Below are positions 10,143 to 19,503 of a stretch of 64,000 bases of DNA, piece by piece. The first letter of the stretch is position 1; each line of letters opens with the position of its first letter. The notes under the pieces are model-generated. The model did not search any database. It saw nothing but the letters and a program-made list of their open reading frames with translations, and was not told where the DNA came from. Made by a program: the position numbers and the translations under genes. Origin of the DNA: Nitrospirota bacterium (GTDB lineage: Bacteria > Nitrospirota > Nitrospiria > Nitrospirales > Nitrospiraceae); the NCBI GenBank assembly GCA_004296885.1, contig SCVN01000023.1, forward strand, positions 186,001-250,000, in the 5' to 3' direction.

Positions 10143-10202
10143 CAGGTAACCTGAGTCGAGGGCTGACCTGCACTGGATCTTAACTAAAAGTGGAGGCGGG
10201 TG

Positions 10203-11039
10203 ATGGACAAGGGAGTGAAGAGATCTCTTCAACAGTATGCCCAGGTCTTTCAGGACGGCCGCCAGCGAGGCATCAATGAAGCAGATACGGTCATGTACCT
10301 CACTAAATTTTTCACTGATGTGTTGGGATATGATCTGTTTTCAGAGATTACAAAAGAATTCCAAGTACGAGATCGCTATTGTGATATCGCCGTAAAGATC
10401 GGAGGGCAGGTTAGATTCCTTGTGGAAGCAAAAGCCATGCCCTTACCGCTGGCAGACAGGCATATTGAGCAAGCAGGAAATTATGCGTCACGGTCTGGGA
10501 TTCCATGGGTAGTCCTGACCAATGGCATCTCCTGGAGACTGTACCATTTAACCTTCGATGCGGGTGGAATTGAACATGACCTTGCTTTTGAAGTTGATCT
10601 CGCTCCCGAATCCGACCTTGAAGAGGCGTGGAGATGCTTGCACCTTCTCTCTCGTGAGAGCTTAGTCAGTGAAGGACTGGAAGACTTCTGGGCTCACAAG
10701 AAAACATTAAGCCCCGCGTCACTCGTTAAGGCTCTTTTTACTGAAGAAGTCTTGAATGCTCTCCGGAGAGATTTGCACCGTAAATCAGAGGTGCGCTTGG
10801 AGTTAACCGATGTTGCTGCTTCACTTCGGCGCCTACTTAACCCTGAGGTCCTGACTGAGGATATTAAAATACGCAAGGCCAGAAAAAAGAAAAAGAAAAG
10901 CGCTAAGACAGAGGGTCAAGGAGATGCAGACGGCAATGATCTTCAAGACCCTGAAGAAGAGCTAGCCGATGCAACAGATGAAGGCATGGCTGGCCCTGCA
11001 TCAAATCAGGACGGCCCGCCAGCAGGGAACATTGACTAG
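10203..11039 (+). CDS. Orphan HsdR N-terminal-like (PD-(D/E)XK) nuclease-domain protein
   Basis: 278 residues. The N-terminal half resembles the HSDR_N domain of type I restriction R subunits: FTDVLGYDLFSEITKEF, then RYCDIAVKI and RFLVEAKA, giving the D...ExK residues of a PD-(D/E)XK nuclease, followed by SGIPWVVLTNGISWRLYHL. No helicase motor, HsdM or HsdS lies nearby. The last 60 residues are low complexity: a lysine-rich run (KARKKKKKSAK) and then an acidic Asp/Glu tail. ATG at 10203 is preferred over GTG at 10200 because GGAGG sits 6 nt upstream. The gene is visibly AT-richer than its neighbours, suggesting horizontal transfer. Confidence 0.75.
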   Translation: MDKGVKRSLQQYAQVFQDGRQRGINEADTVMYLTKFFTDVLGYDLFSEITKEFQVRDRYCDIAVKIGGQVRFLVEAKAMPLPLADRHIEQAGNYASRSGIPWVVLTNGISWRLYHLTFDAGGIEHDLAFEVDLAPESDLEEAWRCLHLLSRESLVSEGLEDFWAHKKTLSPASLVKALFTEEVLNALRRDLHRKSEVRLELTDVAASLRRLLNPEVLTEDIKIRKARKKKKKSAKTEGQGDADGNDLQDPEEELADATDEGMAGPASNQDGPPAGNID

Positions 11040-11083: not shown

Positions 11084-11113
11084 TTGACTGGCCTGAAAAC
11101 TGCGTGCTATAGT
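11084..11113 (+). promoter_or_regulatory. Sigma70 promoter with extended -10, upstream of the ProA-like gene
   Basis: TTGACT (11084-11089), 18 bp, TATAGT (11108-11113), with TGC directly before the -10. The leader of about 33 nt contains CACGAGG before the ATG at 11153, supporting that start over the longer open frame. Confidence 0.6.
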
Positions 11114-11152: not shown

Positions 11153-12520
11153 ATGGTTGAAGTTCCGGTCAAGATGTATGTGGCGGCCCTCGCCAAAAAA
11201 GCGAAAGAGGCGGCGCGGGCGATGGCGCTCGTATCCGGTTCCGTCAAGACCAAGGCCTTGTTAGCCATGGCCGACCGCTTGGAGGCGGAAGAAGAAGCTA
11301 TTTTTGAAGACAACCGGCTGGATGCGGAAGCGGTGGGCAAGAGCCTGACCGGTGACACCAACCGGGACACGGTGAAAGAAGCCGTGGATCGGGTCCGCTT
11401 TGCGGAGGATGCCGTCAAGGAGATGGCCAAGACCTTGCGCCAGGTCGCGGATATGCCTGACCCGGTCGGAGAGATGACCAAGCTTTGGCGCCAACCCAAC
11501 GGAATGCAGGTCAGCCGCATGCGCGTGCCGTTGGGCGTCATCGGGATCATTTCCGACGGAGGGCCGCCGGTCACGACCGAGTGCATCGCGCTCTGCTTGA
11601 AGGCGGGCAACGTCAGCCTGGTGCGCGGAGGCCCGGAATGGGCCAAGTCCGGCGCCCGGGTGGCGACCATCCTGCGCGAGGCGGCGGAGGCGGCCGGTGT
11701 GTCGGCCGGGGGCATCACCTTCGTGGAACGCAACGAAAAAGACGCGGCGCTGGAGCTGCTCCGGCTCAACAAGCATCTGGACGCGATCCTCCCTCGGGGC
11801 GGGGCCGGCTTGCGCAGGACGGTCATCGAGCAGACCCGTCTACCGGTGCTGGGTCAGGACGTGGGCGTAAGCCATGTCTATATCGACGGGGATGCGGACC
11901 TGCCGCTAGCCCAGAACATCGTGGTGAACTCCAAGGCGCAGCAGCCGACCGCACCCAACGCCGTGGACTGCGTGCTGGTCCACCAAGCCGTGGCTCGGTC
12001 GCTCTTGTCCGCCCTGATTCGGCGCTTGCTGGACGAGTTTCGAGTGGAAGTGCGGGGCTGCCCTAAGACGATCGCCATGACCGGGTCTTTCGCCTTGCCC
12101 GGTTATATGAATCTCATCGCCGCCACGGACGACGACTGGGGAAAACAATTTCTGTCCAAGACGTTGGCGCTCAAGGTCGTGACGGATATGGACGATGCCT
12201 TGGCCCACATCGCGCAATATGGTCCCGGCCATACGGATACGATCGTGACCCGCGACTATACCTCGGCGATGCGCTTTATCCGCGAGGTGGATGCGAGCGC
12301 GGTCCTGGTGAACGCCTCCACGCGACTGCACGACGGGCAGGAGTTCGGATTGGGCGGGGGGCTGGGCGTCAATACCACCAAGCTGCCGGCGCGCGGGCCC
12401 GTGTCGTTGGACGAACTCACGTGCCAGAAATATGTGGTCATGGGCACAGGCCAACTCCGTCACCCCCATCCGGTGCCGGTGACCTATGAAGACGCGATCA
12501 TGTTGAAACGGCCCTCGTAA
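11153..12520 (+). CDS. proA: ProA-family (gamma-glutamyl phosphate reductase) homologue lacking the catalytic cysteine
   Basis: Canonical ProA makes glutamate 5-semialdehyde for proline synthesis. This 455-residue protein aligns with ProA along its length: MRVPLGVIGI, LPRGGAGLRR, HVYIDGDADL, LVNASTRLHDGQEFGLG and ARGPVSLDELT. However, the nucleophile motif QRPS(V/T)CN of the family reads QQPTAPN here, with Pro268 where the catalytic Cys should be; the nearest cysteine is Cys273. The YESRPNVT segment is also changed to SDGGPPVT. The protein is about 35 residues longer than usual. No proB is adjacent. It may be inactive as a reductase or have another role; a second, canonical ProA would be expected elsewhere in the genome. 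Confidence 0.8.
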   Translation: MVEVPVKMYVAALAKKAKEAARAMALVSGSVKTKALLAMADRLEAEEEAIFEDNRLDAEAVGKSLTGDTNRDTVKEAVDRVRFAEDAVKEMAKTLRQVADMPDPVGEMTKLWRQPNGMQVSRMRVPLGVIGIISDGGPPVTTECIALCLKAGNVSLVRGGPEWAKSGARVATILREAAEAAGVSAGGITFVERNEKDAALELLRLNKHLDAILPRGGAGLRRTVIEQTRLPVLGQDVGVSHVYIDGDADLPLAQNIVVNSKAQQPTAPNAVDCVLVHQAVARSLLSALIRRLLDEFRVEVRGCPKTIAMTGSFALPGYMNLIAATDDDWGKQFLSKTLALKVVTDMDDALAHIAQYGPGHTDTIVTRDYTSAMRFIREVDASAVLVNASTRLHDGQEFGLGGGLGVNTTKLPARGPVSLDELTCQKYVVMGTGQLRHPHPVPVTYEDAIMLKRPS

Positions 12521-12522
12521 GA

Positions 12523-12606
12523 AGCTGTCAGCGATCAGCAGTCAGCTTTTTCGAAATGAGCCCCGACAAACGCCTCATCATAAGCTGATAGCTGAAGGCT
12601 GATTGC
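12523..12606. repeat. Inverted short-period (about 7 bp) degenerate repeat
   Basis: The left arm (12523-12548, CTGTCAGCGATCAGCAGTCA) and right arm (12581-12606, AAGCTGATAGCTGAAGGCTG) are built from GCTGAnn-like units and are roughly complementary, so the stretch can fold into a hairpin. It follows the ProA-like gene and may end its transcript. Related units recur at 21460-21526. Confidence 0.45.
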
Positions 12607-12618
12607 TCTCCCGTCACC

Positions 12619-13884
12619 ATGACCGGCCCAGACCTCCACTCTCTGCAAACCGGACTCGCCGAGCACCTTGCCTGGTGGGGATTGCGGCATGTCGAGTCCG
12701 ACCGAGTCTACTTCGAGTGGCAGCAGGAGACTCTGTCGCCGGGCCAGCTGACATCGCTCCATCGGGCAGTGGAAGCCAAACAGGCCCAGCCCCAGCGAGC
12801 CGATCTGGAAACGGCGTTTTACGATCTGGCGGCCGATCCGTCTATCCTGCCGGTCCTGTACAGCCAACGCTATGAACTGTATCAAACCGTCGGCCCGCTG
12901 ATCGCCGCCCTGTTGTCCGCCGAAGGTCCGGCGCAGGGGACGGTCCTGGATTTCGGCTGCGGGGTCGGGGTGCTGACGACCTTCTACGCCAAGGTCTTTC
13001 CGAGCCTGATGATCGTGGGGCTCGATCGCTCCGTCGCCTCGGTCAAGGCCGCGCAAGAGCGGGCCCAGGCCTTGGGACTCACGAACGTCCGATTTGAATC
13101 CCTGGATATCGAACGGGCACCAGTTCCCGGCCCCTTCGATGTGATCCTTTCGGTTCATGCTCTCTTACAAGCCGAGGGGGAGCCGGGCCTGCCGAGCCGG
13201 GATTGGACGACATTCGAACGTCCGCCTGGGACAGGTCCCCAAGAGGCGTTTGAACAGCGCACCGGATTGGGGCTCAGGCTCGACCGGCTCTGTGCCGTCC
13301 TGGCTCAGGAGGGGCTGCTCATTGCTTTTGAGAAGACCCGCGAATTGGCGAGGCGGGTTCCCTTCCAGCGCGCCCTCGCCGCCCGCGGCCTGATCCTGGC
13401 CAAGCCTCCGCTGCCGCTGCGGTATCGGATCATCGAAGAGGTCTCGGACGACGGGCCCTTATATGTGACGGGCCGGGGAGGGGCATCGGGCGAGGGCCAT
13501 CCCGGAAACGAAGCCCAGCCCTGGGATGAAACCCCGGAAGAGCGGGGAGAAGCCATTGCGTCCGTTACAGAGTTGCTCGCGCAGGTGCGGGCCTCAGCCA
13601 CCAGGGCTCCAGCCACCTCCCAGGCCCCCCTCTATGAAAATCACGAGGCTTCGGCTGAGTCGGTCTGGCTGGGTCTGCCGGACCGCCTGATCCGCCGCGA
13701 ACAGACCTTTACGGCCCCCACCGGCGCTCAGGTTCACGTCGAACTCGGCGAGTCAGACGGACTCAGGTACCTCTACCAAGCCACGACCCTTGACCACCGC
13801 CAATTGGTCCTGGTCGAGCCGGCTCGGGCGGCCCTGCTGGAGGCCTACTATGCAGAACTGCTTCCCCAACAGCCAGACATGTAA
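12619..13884 (+). CDS. Class I SAM-dependent methyltransferase, 421 aa
   Basis: The SAM-binding motif I is VLDFGCGVGVLTTFYA near residue 112, followed by IVGLDRS (motif II acidic residue) and FDVILSVHALLQ (motif IV). The N-terminal 100 residues and the C-terminal 170 are not recognisable; the C-terminus may be a substrate domain. The substrate is unknown. It begins 98 nt after the ProA-like gene and precedes the B12 radical SAM pair by 108 nt, where a separate promoter exists. Confidence 0.75.
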   Translation: MTGPDLHSLQTGLAEHLAWWGLRHVESDRVYFEWQQETLSPGQLTSLHRAVEAKQAQPQRADLETAFYDLAADPSILPVLYSQRYELYQTVGPLIAALLSAEGPAQGTVLDFGCGVGVLTTFYAKVFPSLMIVGLDRSVASVKAAQERAQALGLTNVRFESLDIERAPVPGPFDVILSVHALLQAEGEPGLPSRDWTTFERPPGTGPQEAFEQRTGLGLRLDRLCAVLAQEGLLIAFEKTRELARRVPFQRALAARGLILAKPPLPLRYRIIEEVSDDGPLYVTGRGGASGEGHPGNEAQPWDETPEERGEAIASVTELLAQVRASATRAPATSQAPLYENHEASAESVWLGLPDRLIRREQTFTAPTGAQVHVELGESDGLRYLYQATTLDHRQLVLVEPARAALLEAYYAELLPQQPDM

Positions 13885-13992: not shown

Positions 13993-15900
13993 ATGCGCGT
14001 GCAATACTCCAAGGGGACGCAAGCCTCCGAGGAATTGATACAACTTCATCGGCGAACCTCCGAGGAGGCAGCCGGCGGGCGAAAGGTCAAAGTACTGTTG
14101 ATCTTTCCGCCTGATTGGTATCCCTCCGAGCCCTACCTCAGCTTGCCCACGCTCACGTCCGTGCTCCGTGCCGCCGGCCATACCGTCGTCCAGAAAGACG
14201 TCAATCTGGAAATGTACGACTGGTACTTCAGCGAGGACTTCCTCAAGAAGGTGCTGCGGCGGGTGCCCCAGCAGTTGGACCGGCTGAGAAAGCTCGCCAA
14301 GAAGCGCGCCCTGGAAGAATGGGAACGGGACCTGCAACTGGCCCTCTGCGACCTCACGCGGGAACGGATCGCCGAGCTGGCCCGCAAGGCCGAAGAGGCC
14401 AAACGCATCGTCCGCAGCCAGGACTTCTACGACATCGACAAGCTCGAATGGGCCGTCAATACGTTTCGCGAGGTTACCGCGGCCATTTCGCTCGTCTATG
14501 CGCCGGCCCGCATCTGCATGCCGCCGATGGAGACCGATCTCTCTTATAAAGTCTACGTTTCGTCCGAGATCATGGACGCCGTGCAGGATCAGCAGGTCAA
14601 CGTCTATCGCGACGTATTCGAGCACCTGGTCAAACCGGCGATCGAGGCCGAACGGCCGGACGTGATCGGCATCTCGATCGTGCTCCAGCAGCAGCTCTTC
14701 TCCAGCATGACCTTCTGCGCCCTCATCAAGCAGCATTTCCCCGACATCCACGTCACGATCGGCGGCAACACGGTGACGCGCTTGCGCGACCTGCTGCCCC
14801 AGTCGCCGCTCTTCGCCTATTTCGACAGCGCGGTCTTTTATGAAGGGGAAACGGCGTTCCTGCAACTGGTCGAATCGGTGGGGGCGGGGCGCAGCCTGGA
14901 CGGCGTCCCCAATGTGCTCTACCGCGATGCATCCGGGGTGCACACCTCGACGCTGACCTACTCGGAAGACATGGAGGCATTGCCGCCGCCGGATTTCGAT
15001 GGCCTGCCGCTGGACAAGTACTTTCTGCCGGACAAGATTCTGCCCTATTTGGCGACGCGCGGCTGCTATTGGGGCCGCTGCGAGTTCTGCGACCACGGCG
15101 AGGGCTACACGGCCGGCTACCGGACGAAGAAGATTCAGCAGATTCTGGACGAGGTGCAGCAGTTACGCGACAAGCACCGGGTCCGGCATTTCCACTTTAC
15201 CGACGAATCCTATCCGCCGGCCCTGTTCCGCAAGCTCTGTCGCGGGCTGATCGAGCGCCGCATGGACATCGCTTGGACGACCCACATGCGCTACGAGAAA
15301 AGCCTGCTCGACGAACCGGTGTGGGAGGACGCCAAGCGGGCGGGACTCAAGTACCTGCACGTGGGCTACGAGTCGGGCAACGAGCGGGTGCTCAAGCTGA
15401 TGGACAAGGCGACGACGACGGACGTGATCACGCGCAGCCTCCAACTGTCGGCCAAGGCGGGCATCTGGAATCACGCGATGGGCTTTTTCGGATTTCCCGG
15501 TGAGACCCGCGAGGAAGCGCTGGACTCCATCCGGTTCCTGGCCAAGAACAAGGACATCGTCCATTCCGTCGGCTTCGGCACGTTCGATCTCAGCCGCCAC
15601 ACGCCGGTGGCCAAGAATCCCGAAAAGTGGGGCGTGACACCCTATGTCAACCCCGAGTGGGACCTGGCGCTGGACTACTATTACACGGTCAAGCAGGGGC
15701 TCAGCATCGAGGAAGCGGAGCAGGTCTTCGAGGAGTTCGAGCGGAACCATCCGTCCAACTGGGACCTGCGGATTTTCATTCGGGAGTATATTTTCCTCTA
15801 CGTCGCCCGGTTCGGCTTGAGCACATTGCCGGCGCTCCAATTCGACGCGGCGAAGGCCGGCTCCGGATCGCCCCCGTCGCTGGAAGCGAAAGTCTGTTGA
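13993..15900 (+). CDS. B12-binding-type radical SAM protein, copy 1
   Basis: 635 residues. The N-terminal region (about 35-270) resembles a cobalamin-binding Rossmann domain (VKVLLIFPPDWYPSEPYLSL; RPDVIGISIVLQQQ; HVTIGGNTVTRL) but lacks the DxHxxG motif, as in many B12 radical SAM enzymes. The radical SAM core carries Cys358, Cys363 and Cys366 in RGCYWGRCEFC, a CX4CX2C spacing. Later segments HVGYESGNERVL and GFFGFPGETREEAL are typical of this superfamily. The protein is cytosolic. The substrate is unknown; radical methylation or ring rearrangement are the usual activities. It is paralogous to the next gene and separated from it by two bases. Confidence 0.85.
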   Translation: MRVQYSKGTQASEELIQLHRRTSEEAAGGRKVKVLLIFPPDWYPSEPYLSLPTLTSVLRAAGHTVVQKDVNLEMYDWYFSEDFLKKVLRRVPQQLDRLRKLAKKRALEEWERDLQLALCDLTRERIAELARKAEEAKRIVRSQDFYDIDKLEWAVNTFREVTAAISLVYAPARICMPPMETDLSYKVYVSSEIMDAVQDQQVNVYRDVFEHLVKPAIEAERPDVIGISIVLQQQLFSSMTFCALIKQHFPDIHVTIGGNTVTRLRDLLPQSPLFAYFDSAVFYEGETAFLQLVESVGAGRSLDGVPNVLYRDASGVHTSTLTYSEDMEALPPPDFDGLPLDKYFLPDKILPYLATRGCYWGRCEFCDHGEGYTAGYRTKKIQQILDEVQQLRDKHRVRHFHFTDESYPPALFRKLCRGLIERRMDIAWTTHMRYEKSLLDEPVWEDAKRAGLKYLHVGYESGNERVLKLMDKATTTDVITRSLQLSAKAGIWNHAMGFFGFPGETREEALDSIRFLAKNKDIVHSVGFGTFDLSRHTPVAKNPEKWGVTPYVNPEWDLALDYYYTVKQGLSIEEAEQVFEEFERNHPSNWDLRIFIREYIFLYVARFGLSTLPALQFDAAKAGSGSPPSLEAKVC

Positions 15901-15902
15901 GC

Positions 15903-17843
15903 ATGAGCACGTTGCTGCACATTGACGGCACCATGCCCAGCGCGGCGCAGGCGCATACCGCTCCCGCCCGCAAGCTGAAGACCATGCTCCTGTTCCCCCC
16001 GGAATGGGTGCCGACGGCGCCCTACCTGGCCTTGCCCAGCCTCACCGCGGTGCTGCGTGAACAGGGGCATGAGGTCGTGCAGAAGGACATCAACATCGAG
16101 ATGTACGACCACTTCTTCAGCGACTCCTTCCTGATCTGGGTCAAGACCCGCATGGCTTCGCAGCTTCGCGCCCTGGAGGACAAGGCCAAACACGCCTGGC
16201 TGACGGAAGCGGAAACCCAGCACAAAGCTTGCCTGACCGCCAAGGTCGATCTGGACGTCTTCGAGCTCATCGAACAGGCCCAGCGGGCCAAATCCATTGT
16301 GCGCGGGGAGGCCTTCTACCAGGCGGACAAGCTGGAATGGGCCCTGAATACCTTCCGCCAGGTGATGCAGTACATCTCGGCCGCCTACTATCCGGCATCG
16401 ATCGTCTTCTATCCGATGGAGAGCAATCTCGGCTATCGGCCCGGCGTCTCGCGCGAAGTCCTCGCTTGCCTGGATGACGACCAGGTGAATGTGTATCGGG
16501 ATATCTGCCGGCAACTCGTGCTTCCGGCAGTGAGCAAGGAGGCGCCGGACGTGGTGGGGGTTTCGATCGGCACGCAGATGCAGCTCCTGGCCGGGCTGAC
16601 CTTCTGCAAGATGGTCAAAGAAGCCTTCCCAAACATTCATGTGACGGTCGGGGGCAACGTGATCACCCGCCTGCAGGAAGAGCTGCCCCGGCAGGAACGG
16701 TTTTTCACCGAGGTCTTCGATTCGGCCATCATGTACGAGGGCGAGCACGCACTGTTGTGGCTCCTGGAGGCCCTGTCCGGAGGACGGGCCATCGAGTCCG
16801 TGCCGAACCTCATGTATCGGGACGCAACCGGCATCCACGTCAACAAGGAAATCTATACGGAGAAGACCGCGGCCTTGCCGCTCCCGGACTTTGAAGGGCT
16901 GCCCCTCGACCATTATTTCTCGCCGGTCCGCATCCTGCCGTACCTCGCCACCAGAGGCTGCTACTGGGGCCGCTGCACGTTTTGCGATCACGGACAGGGC
17001 TATTTCGACCAGTACCGGGGGCTGCCGGCGCAGGACGTCGTCCGCCAAGTCAAGGCATTGAAGGAAAAATACCAGGCCGAGCATTTTCTCTTTGCCGACG
17101 AGTCCTATCCGCCGGCCCTGTTCAAGAAAGTCTCCCAACTGCTGGTCGAGCAGAACGTCGGGATCAAGTGGACCACGTTGATCCGCTTCGAAGAAACCCT
17201 GCAAGAACAGGACATGAAACTCGCGGCTCAGGCCGGCTGCTGCACCCTCTATTACGGCATGGAGTCGGCGAACGAGCGGGTGCTGGGCCTCATGGACAAG
17301 CACGTCAAGAAGTCTATCATCGCGCGCAACCTCAAGGACGCGGCCCAGGTCGGAATCTGGAACCACGTCATGGCGTTTTACGGATTCCCGGGGGAGACCC
17401 GCGACGAGGCGCTGGAGACCAGGCAGTTCGTCCTGGACAACCAGCCGCAGATCCATTCGGTGGAGCTGTTCTACTTCGTGGCCTATCGACACACGCCGAT
17501 GGTGCGCAAACCGGAACAATTCGGCATCACGATCCACAAGCAGGACGACTATGATCTGCCGCTGGATTATTATTACACGCTGAACGAACCGGTCGGGCTG
17601 ACCTGCCTGGACGCGATGCAGCTCTGCGAGGAGTTCTATCAGAACGACTTCGAGCCCTGGGCCGTGCGGGTGAATGCCCGCGAACACGTCTTCCTCTACA
17701 TTTCCAAGTACGGCACGAACTGCTTGCCGCAGATTTATGCGAAGACGAAGAGCGGCGATGAGGTTTCCGGTCTCGTCACCTGGCCGGTTGCGCGGGGGGA
17801 GGAAGGCGACATGGCCCGCGTGGTCAGCCACGCGGTTTCATAG
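15903..17843 (+). CDS. B12-binding-type radical SAM protein, copy 2
   Basis: 646 residues, the same architecture as copy 1 with strong similarity throughout (MLLFPPEWVPTAPYLALPSL; RGCYWGRCTFCDHGQGY with Cys353, Cys358, Cys361; YYGMESANERVLGLMD). The tandem arrangement with a 2-nt gap suggests an old duplication kept as a functional pair. The open frame runs upstream to 15627 inside copy 1, but the ATG at 15903 aligns with the paralogue's N-terminus and fits coupled translation. The C-terminal regions differ most, so the two may act on different substrates or form a heterodimer. Confidence 0.85.
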   Translation: MSTLLHIDGTMPSAAQAHTAPARKLKTMLLFPPEWVPTAPYLALPSLTAVLREQGHEVVQKDINIEMYDHFFSDSFLIWVKTRMASQLRALEDKAKHAWLTEAETQHKACLTAKVDLDVFELIEQAQRAKSIVRGEAFYQADKLEWALNTFRQVMQYISAAYYPASIVFYPMESNLGYRPGVSREVLACLDDDQVNVYRDICRQLVLPAVSKEAPDVVGVSIGTQMQLLAGLTFCKMVKEAFPNIHVTVGGNVITRLQEELPRQERFFTEVFDSAIMYEGEHALLWLLEALSGGRAIESVPNLMYRDATGIHVNKEIYTEKTAALPLPDFEGLPLDHYFSPVRILPYLATRGCYWGRCTFCDHGQGYFDQYRGLPAQDVVRQVKALKEKYQAEHFLFADESYPPALFKKVSQLLVEQNVGIKWTTLIRFEETLQEQDMKLAAQAGCCTLYYGMESANERVLGLMDKHVKKSIIARNLKDAAQVGIWNHVMAFYGFPGETRDEALETRQFVLDNQPQIHSVELFYFVAYRHTPMVRKPEQFGITIHKQDDYDLPLDYYYTLNEPVGLTCLDAMQLCEEFYQNDFEPWAVRVNAREHVFLYISKYGTNCLPQIYAKTKSGDEVSGLVTWPVARGEEGDMARVVSHAVS

Positions 17844-18264: not shown

Positions 18265-19503
18265 ATGAACCGCCCGCTCCCCATCCTCCAGCCGGCCAAA
18301 CTCCTTGCGGGGAAGGATTACCGCGAGGTGCTCAACCAGGAGATGGATGCGGGGAAGATCCCCATCAGCCTGGGGAAAAACTGTCCGGTCAAGTGCGAGT
18401 TCTGCTACGAGACGGACCATTCCTACCGTGAAACCCTGGAGCCGCCCAAGACCACCCAGGAAGACTGGGCCTACATCCTCGACTACCTCAACAAGAAGCC
18501 GACCGATCCCGCGCAATTTTGGTGTCTGGGCGGAAACGAGTACATGGAGTGGACCGACCTCTTTCTGCACCCCAAGGCCATGGAATGGGTCGAGGATTTT
18601 CTCAAGCACACGGACAAGAACCTGACCTTCTTCACCGTTGGCTTCGTCCACGTGCCCAAGATCCATCAATTGGCCGCCCAATATCCGGGGCGGATCAATT
18701 TCGAGCTGTCGGTGATCACGCTCGGAGACTATCGGCAACGGCTGATGCCCCATGCGCCGGCGGTCAAACACTTGCTCAAGGTCCTGGACGGCCCGGCCGT
18801 GTCGTCGGCCAACTTCTACAGCTTCGGCGACCAGACGATGTCGAGGGATGCGGCGATGATTTCGGAGGTCAATCAGAAGTGCGTCCTCTGGATGGGCTGC
18901 CTGACCCCGGTCCGCGGGATCAAACCGGAGACGGCGGACCTGATGCGGCAGGGCCGGAAAGCATTGCCTCAGGAAGCCCGGCGCATCTACGACTTGGGCC
19001 TGCCGAATATGACGACCATTCACACGGAGGCTTACATTACCGCCTTCCTGAACCGTCGCCGCATCGTCAATGAGTTCGACAAGCTGGAGTTGGAGAAGAA
19101 AGACACGGTCATCGTGGCCGGCAGCGTCTACAAGATTCTGAACCTGTACCGGAAGCGGCGGGCCCGGTACCTCTATGTGCCGAATACGACCTTGGGCGGG
19201 GATTCGGACTGCACGGTGCTCCTGACCTTCGACGATATCGCCAGGCGGATTACCAAGGAGAAGCTCGTCCACATCCCCAAGTGCGTCATGCAGTCGGGGC
19301 GCGGACCCTATCGGGACATCGCCGGCGTCTCGCTGGACGATTTCATAAAAAAAACCGGCGTCAAGGTGAGAGTCCTGCACAAAATCGACACCAACTTCGC
19401 CAACCGGCAACTGTACCGGAACGGATTTCTGAAGAACTACGTGGAAGACTACCTCCGCCACCCCTTGGCGCAATCGTACGAAGCCCTCTCCGTCCCGGCC
19501 TGA
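18265..19503 (+). CDS. Radical SAM protein with DUF512-like C-terminus, 412 aa
   Basis: The 4Fe-4S motif is NCPVKCEFCYE (Cys40, Cys44, Cys47; the classic CX3CX2C). A (beta/alpha) region follows, including FWCLGGNEYMEW, FTVGFVHVP and NFELSVITL. The C-terminal part (DTVIVAGSVYKILN, NTTLGGDSDCTVLLTFDDI) resembles the DUF512 domain found in some radical SAM proteins. It is not similar to the B12-type pair upstream. Substrate unknown. The gene is divergent from the J-like gene (78-bp gap). Confidence 0.78.
   Translation: MNRPLPILQPAKLLAGKDYREVLNQEMDAGKIPISLGKNCPVKCEFCYETDHSYRETLEPPKTTQEDWAYILDYLNKKPTDPAQFWCLGGNEYMEWTDLFLHPKAMEWVEDFLKHTDKNLTFFTVGFVHVPKIHQLAAQYPGRINFELSVITLGDYRQRLMPHAPAVKHLLKVLDGPAVSSANFYSFGDQTMSRDAAMISEVNQKCVLWMGCLTPVRGIKPETADLMRQGRKALPQEARRIYDLGLPNMTTIHTEAYITAFLNRRRIVNEFDKLELEKKDTVIVAGSVYKILNLYRKRRARYLYVPNTTLGGDSDCTVLLTFDDIARRITKEKLVHIPKCVMQSGRGPYRDIAGVSLDDFIKKTGVKVRVLHKIDTNFANRQLYRNGFLKNYVEDYLRHPLAQSYEALSVPA

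What the first reader, a model, noticed from the sequence alone, without database searches (positions are those of the whole stretch)
11940..11975. ProA homologue with the catalytic cysteine replaced by proline
The family motif around the nucleophile (Q-R-P-S-V/T-C-N) reads Q-Q-P-T-A-P-N, so Cys is Pro268. A second conserved segment, YESRPNVT, is SDGGPPVT. The rest of the protein is well preserved, which argues for selection on a new function rather than decay. Cys273, five residues on, might substitute.
Basis: partly seen in the sequence, partly recalled or inferred. Interest (0 to 1): 0.62.

Follow-up and report, generated by a model that had tools for sequence, protein, structure and literature searches.

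The report
Dead proline-enzyme copy paired with methyltransferase
Nearly all sampled bacteria of two families, Nitrospira and its relatives, carry, beside a normal copy of the proline-making enzyme ProA, a second copy that has lost its catalytic residue; in all 140 cases checked it sits directly in front of the same unstudied methyltransferase gene, so it probably gained a new, non-catalytic job.

Summary
The ORF at 11153-12520 (+, 455 aa) is a ProA homologue (TIGR00407 342 bits, cutoff 317; fold match to 1o20, Z 48) with Pro268 (CCC, 11954-11956) in place of the nucleophilic Cys and SDGGPPVT in place of YESRPNVT. It is neither a sequencing error nor decay. In 53 aligned orthologues position 268 is S/A/P/T, never Cys. 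They form one clade (support 100), sister to the canonical ProA of the same two families (one duplication). dN/dS among close pairs is mostly about 0.05, as low as for canonical ProA. The genome also has a canonical Cys-containing ProA, ProB and ProC. Cys273 is not a substitute: it occurs only in the three nearest sequences. New to this analysis: in 140 of 140 genes checked the Cys-less copy is followed on the same strand by one orthologous SAM methyltransferase with a conserved extra C-terminal domain; in a 198-genome phylum survey that methyltransferase occurs only in those two families. The clade also has an invariant C-terminal tail. Most likely it is a pseudoenzyme working as the non-catalytic partner of this methyltransferase; the physical complex and its substrate are inferred. 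Pseudoenzymes of this superfamily are known; this lineage and pairing were not found in the literature searched.

The parts
11153..12520 (+). Cys-less ProA paralogue (pseudo-ProA), 455 aa
   Evidence: TIGR00407 342 bits, PRK00197 448 bits; fold match to ProA 1o20 Z 48; one clade of 53 Cys-less sequences
11954..11956 (+). Pro268 codon CCC at the position of the catalytic Cys
   Evidence: S/A/P/T in the clade, Cys in 48/48 canonical sequences
11552..11575 (+). SDGGPPVT in place of YESRPNVT
   Evidence: Arg137 and Asn139 lost across the clade
12083..12109 (+). clade-specific insertion, residues 311-319 (consensus GQMAMTGH in most members)
   Evidence: gap in canonical ProA
12464..12511 (+). clade-specific C-terminal tail, residues 438-453 (PHPVPVTYEDAIMLKR)
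   Evidence: PHP, Y, D, A and M invariant in the clade, absent from nearly all canonical ProA
12619..13884 (+). partner gene: class I SAM-dependent methyltransferase, 421 aa
   Evidence: Pfam Methyltransf_31 62 bits; same-strand downstream neighbour in 140/140; found only in the families with pseudo-ProA; model pLDDT 94
12943..12969 (+). SAM-binding motif I of the partner (VLDFGCGVG)
   Evidence: D111, C114, G115, G117 invariant in 48 sequences
13627..13863 (+). C-terminal beta-rich domain of the partner (residues 337-415), no Pfam match
   Evidence: no family up to E 10 for the last 94 aa; strands and helix predicted at high confidence; H342, H373, E375, Y384, Y386, D392, R394 and Q395 invariant
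11084..11113 (+). promoter-like site upstream of the pseudo-ProA start
   Evidence: consensus scan only

Best explanation
The protein is a pseudoenzyme. A copy of proA, duplicated in the common ancestor of the Nitrospira family and a sister family, lost the Cys nucleophile, the conserved Arg137/Asn139 of the YESRPNVT loop and usually the substrate-binding Asp394, but kept the fold, most of the nucleotide-binding core and the C-terminal strand that forms the ProA dimer. It gained an invariant C-terminal tail and an internal insertion. It most likely acts as a non-catalytic subunit (scaffold, ligand sensor or substrate-positioning partner) of the SAM methyltransferase encoded directly downstream; the tail and insertion are candidate docking surfaces. 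Shown by sequence: residue losses, single origin, purifying selection, obligate gene pairing, co-occurrence. Inferred: lack of reductase activity, a physical complex, NADPH or ligand binding. Unknown: the methyl acceptor. My confidence is about 0.9 that it is not a ProA-type reductase and about 0.85 that it works together with the methyltransferase in some way; the figure below is for the full mechanism.
For: Cys lost in 53/53 and replaced by four chemically unlike residues. Single clade, SH-aLRT 100, sister to canonical ProA of the same two families. dN/dS 0.05-0.16 against 0.055-0.086 for canonical ProA. Canonical proA (490 bits), proB and proC elsewhere in the genome. Pseudo-ProA followed by the methyltransferase in 140/140 cases, same strand, in both families. 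Methyltransferase detected in 56 of 198 phylum genomes, all in the two families that carry pseudo-ProA. Invariant clade-specific tail and insertion. Precedents: catalytically dead ALDH16A1 acts through protein interactions (PMC10650815), and GRM1 microcompartment AldDH copies have Cys to Ser/Pro (PMC4207490).
Against: No direct evidence of a complex. Distance-matrix co-evolution over 12 genomes is stronger with canonical ProA (partial r 0.76) than with the methyltransferase (0.24), though this may only reflect the species tree. Several residues of the old active site stay highly conserved (R391, N269, K261, D272), so a ligand or altered chemistry is possible.
Confidence: 0.45

Rival explanations
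1. Prozyme: the dead copy pairs with canonical ProA (or ProB) and regulates proline synthesis; the methyltransferase is a co-expressed modifier or bystander.
For: The ProA dimer strand (LTxxKYVxxGxGQ) is kept. Both paralogues are retained together in nearly all complete genomes. Distance correlation with canonical ProA given the methyltransferase is 0.76. Known precedent in trypanosomes (PMC5201418, PMC3663545).
Against: Gene order ties it to the methyltransferase, not to proA or proB, which lie elsewhere. Does not explain the obligate methyltransferase. The correlation may be species-tree signal (n = 12).
Confidence: 0.2
2. A neofunctionalised enzyme that uses the old pocket and perhaps NADPH for chemistry that needs no Cys, acting on a metabolite that the methyltransferase also handles.
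For: R391, D272, K261 and N269 near-invariant and much of the nucleotide site kept. The conserved Glu of canonical ProA is a conserved Asp272 throughout the clade.
Against: Active-site loops lost conserved residues more often than the rest of the protein (22/34 vs 26/64, p = 0.03, loops chosen by hand). No new invariant nucleophile was identified.
Confidence: 0.2
3. A still-active ProA that uses another Cys (Cys273).
For: Overall ProA scores above curated cutoffs.
Against: Cys273 in 3 of 52 orthologues; Cys303 and Cys148 are already conserved in canonical ProA; the loop Asn is lost; canonical ProA is present.
Confidence: 0.02
4. Decaying pseudogene or assembly error.
For: Loss of catalytic residues.
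Against: dN/dS mostly about 0.05, open frames without inner stops in the listed matches, same loss throughout two families.
Confidence: 0.01

Closest known systems
ProA, gamma-glutamyl phosphate reductase (TIGR00407; PDB 1o20, 4ghk, 8zok)
   Same: Fold over nearly the whole length (Z 48 to 1o20), 37% identity in that alignment, scores above the curated family cutoff
   Different: No catalytic Cys, no RPN motif, extra insertion and C-terminal tail, not with proB, paired with a methyltransferase
ALDH16A1, pseudoenzyme of the aldehyde dehydrogenase superfamily (PMC10650815)
   Same: Aldehyde dehydrogenase fold without catalytic residues, retained by evolution
   Different: Human/eukaryotic, other subfamily; reported partners are maspardin and perhaps HPRT1
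Cys-less AldDH copies of GRM1 microcompartment loci (PMC4207490)
   Same: One of two aldehyde dehydrogenase paralogues has the Cys changed to Ser or Pro
   Different: Microcompartment AldDH, not ProA; no dedicated methyltransferase described in the passage read
Trypanosome prozymes of AdoMetDC and deoxyhypusine synthase (PMC5201418, PMC3663545)
   Same: Catalytically dead paralogue kept next to an active one
   Different: Partner is the active paralogue; here the gene neighbour is a different enzyme class

Membership tests
ProA / gamma-glutamyl phosphate reductase | Score above curated family cutoff | tested here: met
   342 vs 317 and 448 vs 289 bits
ProA / gamma-glutamyl phosphate reductase | Catalytic Cys nucleophile | tested here: not met
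   Pro268; S/A/P/T in 53 of 53 orthologues
ProA / gamma-glutamyl phosphate reductase | YESRPNVT loop (Arg and Asn) | tested here: not met
   SDGGPPVT; Arg137 lost and Asn139 kept in 2 of 52
ProA / gamma-glutamyl phosphate reductase | Substrate-binding Arg/Asp (R712/D715 in Drosophila P5CS, PMC11061531) | tested here: inconclusive
   R391 kept in 52/52; D394 present in this protein but in only 10/52 of the clade; P5CS numbering mapped by motif
ProA / gamma-glutamyl phosphate reductase | ProA fold | tested here: met
   AlphaFold2 model pLDDT 86; 1o20 Z 48.0, rmsd 2.1, 414 aligned
ProA / gamma-glutamyl phosphate reductase | Reductase activity | not testable with these tools
   needs assay
Pseudoenzyme | Loss of catalytic residues with fold kept under purifying selection | tested here: met
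Pseudoenzyme | Measured absence of catalysis | not testable with these tools
   needs assay
Class I SAM methyltransferase (partner) | Rossmann domain with SAM motif I | tested here: met
   Methyltransf_31 62 bits vs cutoff 27; motif invariant; ChlM 4qdj Z 18.3, but many methyltransferases tie and no subfamily is assigned

The most novel reading that the evidence does not exclude
A ProA-derived pseudoenzyme is the regulatory or substrate-binding subunit of a new two-component methyltransferase system, near-universal in Nitrospira and a sister family, that senses NADPH or a glutamate-derived ligand through the old pocket to control a methylation specific to these lineages.
Probability: 0.25. Interest if true: 0.75.

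Novelty: new variant of a known kind. Interest (0 to 1): 0.52.

Why it matters
A core gene pair of Nitrospira-type bacteria appears to be undescribed and would be named ProA automatically because it scores above the equivalog cutoffs. It is a well-sampled case of an enzyme losing its nucleophile once and then being kept under strong selection with a dedicated partner, so how pseudoenzymes acquire new roles becomes testable with two proteins of modest size.

Tried and rejected
Substitute Cys273: not conserved. Decay or sequencing error: excluded by conservation and dN/dS. Co-evolution test with the methyltransferase: did not favour it over canonical ProA; inconclusive. Homology of the methyltransferase to the 597-aa protein behind canonical proA: only hhalign Prob 17.7, E 0.0014; reciprocal HMM searches found nothing. 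Assigning the methyltransferase to a subfamily: no NCBIfam cutoff approached, structural top hits tie. Plasmid search for the methyltransferase: only the generic SAM domain. Literature on Nitrospira ProA paralogues: no hits. A heteromer was not modelled, since only single chains can be predicted here.

Full report
Observation. The ORF starts at ATG 11153 and ends at 12520 (455 aa). It scores above the curated ProA cutoffs and aligns over its length with solved ProA structures, where Pro268 (CCC, 11954-11956) stands on the catalytic Cys and SDGGPPVT on YESRPNVT. The model has pLDDT 86 and matches 1o20 with Z 48, rmsd 2.1 over 414 residues.

A second proA. The same genome holds a canonical ProA with the Cys (490 bits, contig C23:338232-339416), one ProB on another contig and two ProC.

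Orthologues. 146 of 147 genomes of the family have a ProA match, most of them two. In the phylum survey the second copy occurs in the own family and in one sister family of the order (f2). The sampled genomes of two further families of the order (f3, f40) and of other classes have only canonical ProA, apart from a single phylum genome with two matches that was not examined. In a tree of 101 ProA proteins the 53 Cys-less sequences form one clade (SH-aLRT 100), sister to the canonical ProA of the same two families (support 99 for the joint group). This fits one duplication before the two families split. Position 268 is Ser 24, Ala 13, Pro 8 and Thr 8. Such chemical freedom argues against any catalytic role of this residue. 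Cys273 is Thr in 48 of 52. That the own family is Nitrospira is read from the 96% identical locus L006, titled Nitrospira sp..

Selection. Pairwise dN/dS is 0.05-0.16, mostly 0.05-0.07, within the clade, and 0.055-0.086 for the two canonical pairs tested. Positions invariant in canonical ProA are lost more often in four hand-chosen active-site loops (22 of 34) than elsewhere (26 of 64; p = 0.03). This is modest support and depends on the choice of loops. Retained: R391, K261, N269 and most glycines of the nucleotide site. New: D272 for Glu in all members, W163 in nearly all first-family members, an 8-9 residue insertion at 311-319 and a tail with invariant PHP, Y, D, A and M that directly follows the conserved strand LTxxKYVxxGxGQ. 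In P5CS the reductase dimer is formed through pairing of such strands (PMC8963878); assigning this strand to that role is my inference.

The partner. In all 140 genes for which both matches were listed, a class I SAM methyltransferase gene follows on the same strand, with a median of about 130 bases between the pseudo-ProA match and the start of the methyltransferase match. This holds in both families. In a 198-genome phylum search the methyltransferase was found in 56 genomes, all in these two families. Its SAM motif is invariant, so it is probably active. It has an N-terminal helical extension and a beta-rich C-terminal domain without a Pfam match. Its closest structures are a broad range of class I methyltransferases, with ChlM first by a small margin. 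Other neighbours vary: two B12-radical SAM genes follow only in some genera.

Mechanism. Shown: residue losses, ancient single origin, strong purifying selection, obligate gene pairing and co-occurrence. Inferred: no reductase activity; a non-catalytic subunit role for the methyltransferase. Not known: the methyl acceptor, ligand binding, and whether it also pairs with canonical ProA. A small distance-correlation test was inconclusive and leaned towards canonical ProA, so the prozyme rival stays open.

Comparison. Cys-less members of the aldehyde dehydrogenase superfamily are known: ALDH16A1 (PMC10650815) and GRM1 microcompartment AldDH copies with Cys to Ser or Pro (PMC4207490). Dead paralogues as activators are known in trypanosomes (PMC5201418, PMC3663545). 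I found no report of such a ProA or of this pair (the library holds open papers only). The protein should not be filed as a functional ProA, because a defining feature was tested and not met.

Noticed in passing
L004:6457-8250 (G000 contig C23, behind canonical proA): A 597-aa protein with no Pfam or NCBIfam match follows canonical proA, also only in the same two families among loci checked. Its C-terminal half has a very weak profile resemblance to the methyltransferase partner, so both proA copies might carry related downstream partners.
   Followed up: partly
G000 C23:325495-326280 and C8:188557-189351: Two proC genes of nearly equal score (298 and 295 bits) in one genome.
   Followed up: no
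window 13993-17843 and 18265-19503: Two adjacent B12-binding radical SAM proteins resembling PhpK/RiPP methylases, then a protein with a CPVKCEFC motif suggesting a third radical SAM enzyme, follow the pair in about ten loci only.
   Followed up: partly
window 12521-12618: Imperfect palindromic repeat (AGCTGATAGCTGAAGGCTGA-like) between the two genes.
   Followed up: no
L114, L115, L111, L119, L124 methyltransferase ORFs: The methyltransferase of the sister family is longer and seems to carry a second, degenerate copy of the C-terminal domain.
   Followed up: partly
window 10200-11039: HSDR_N-like (type I restriction R subunit N-terminal) small protein directly upstream, not conserved next to the pair elsewhere.
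   Followed up: no
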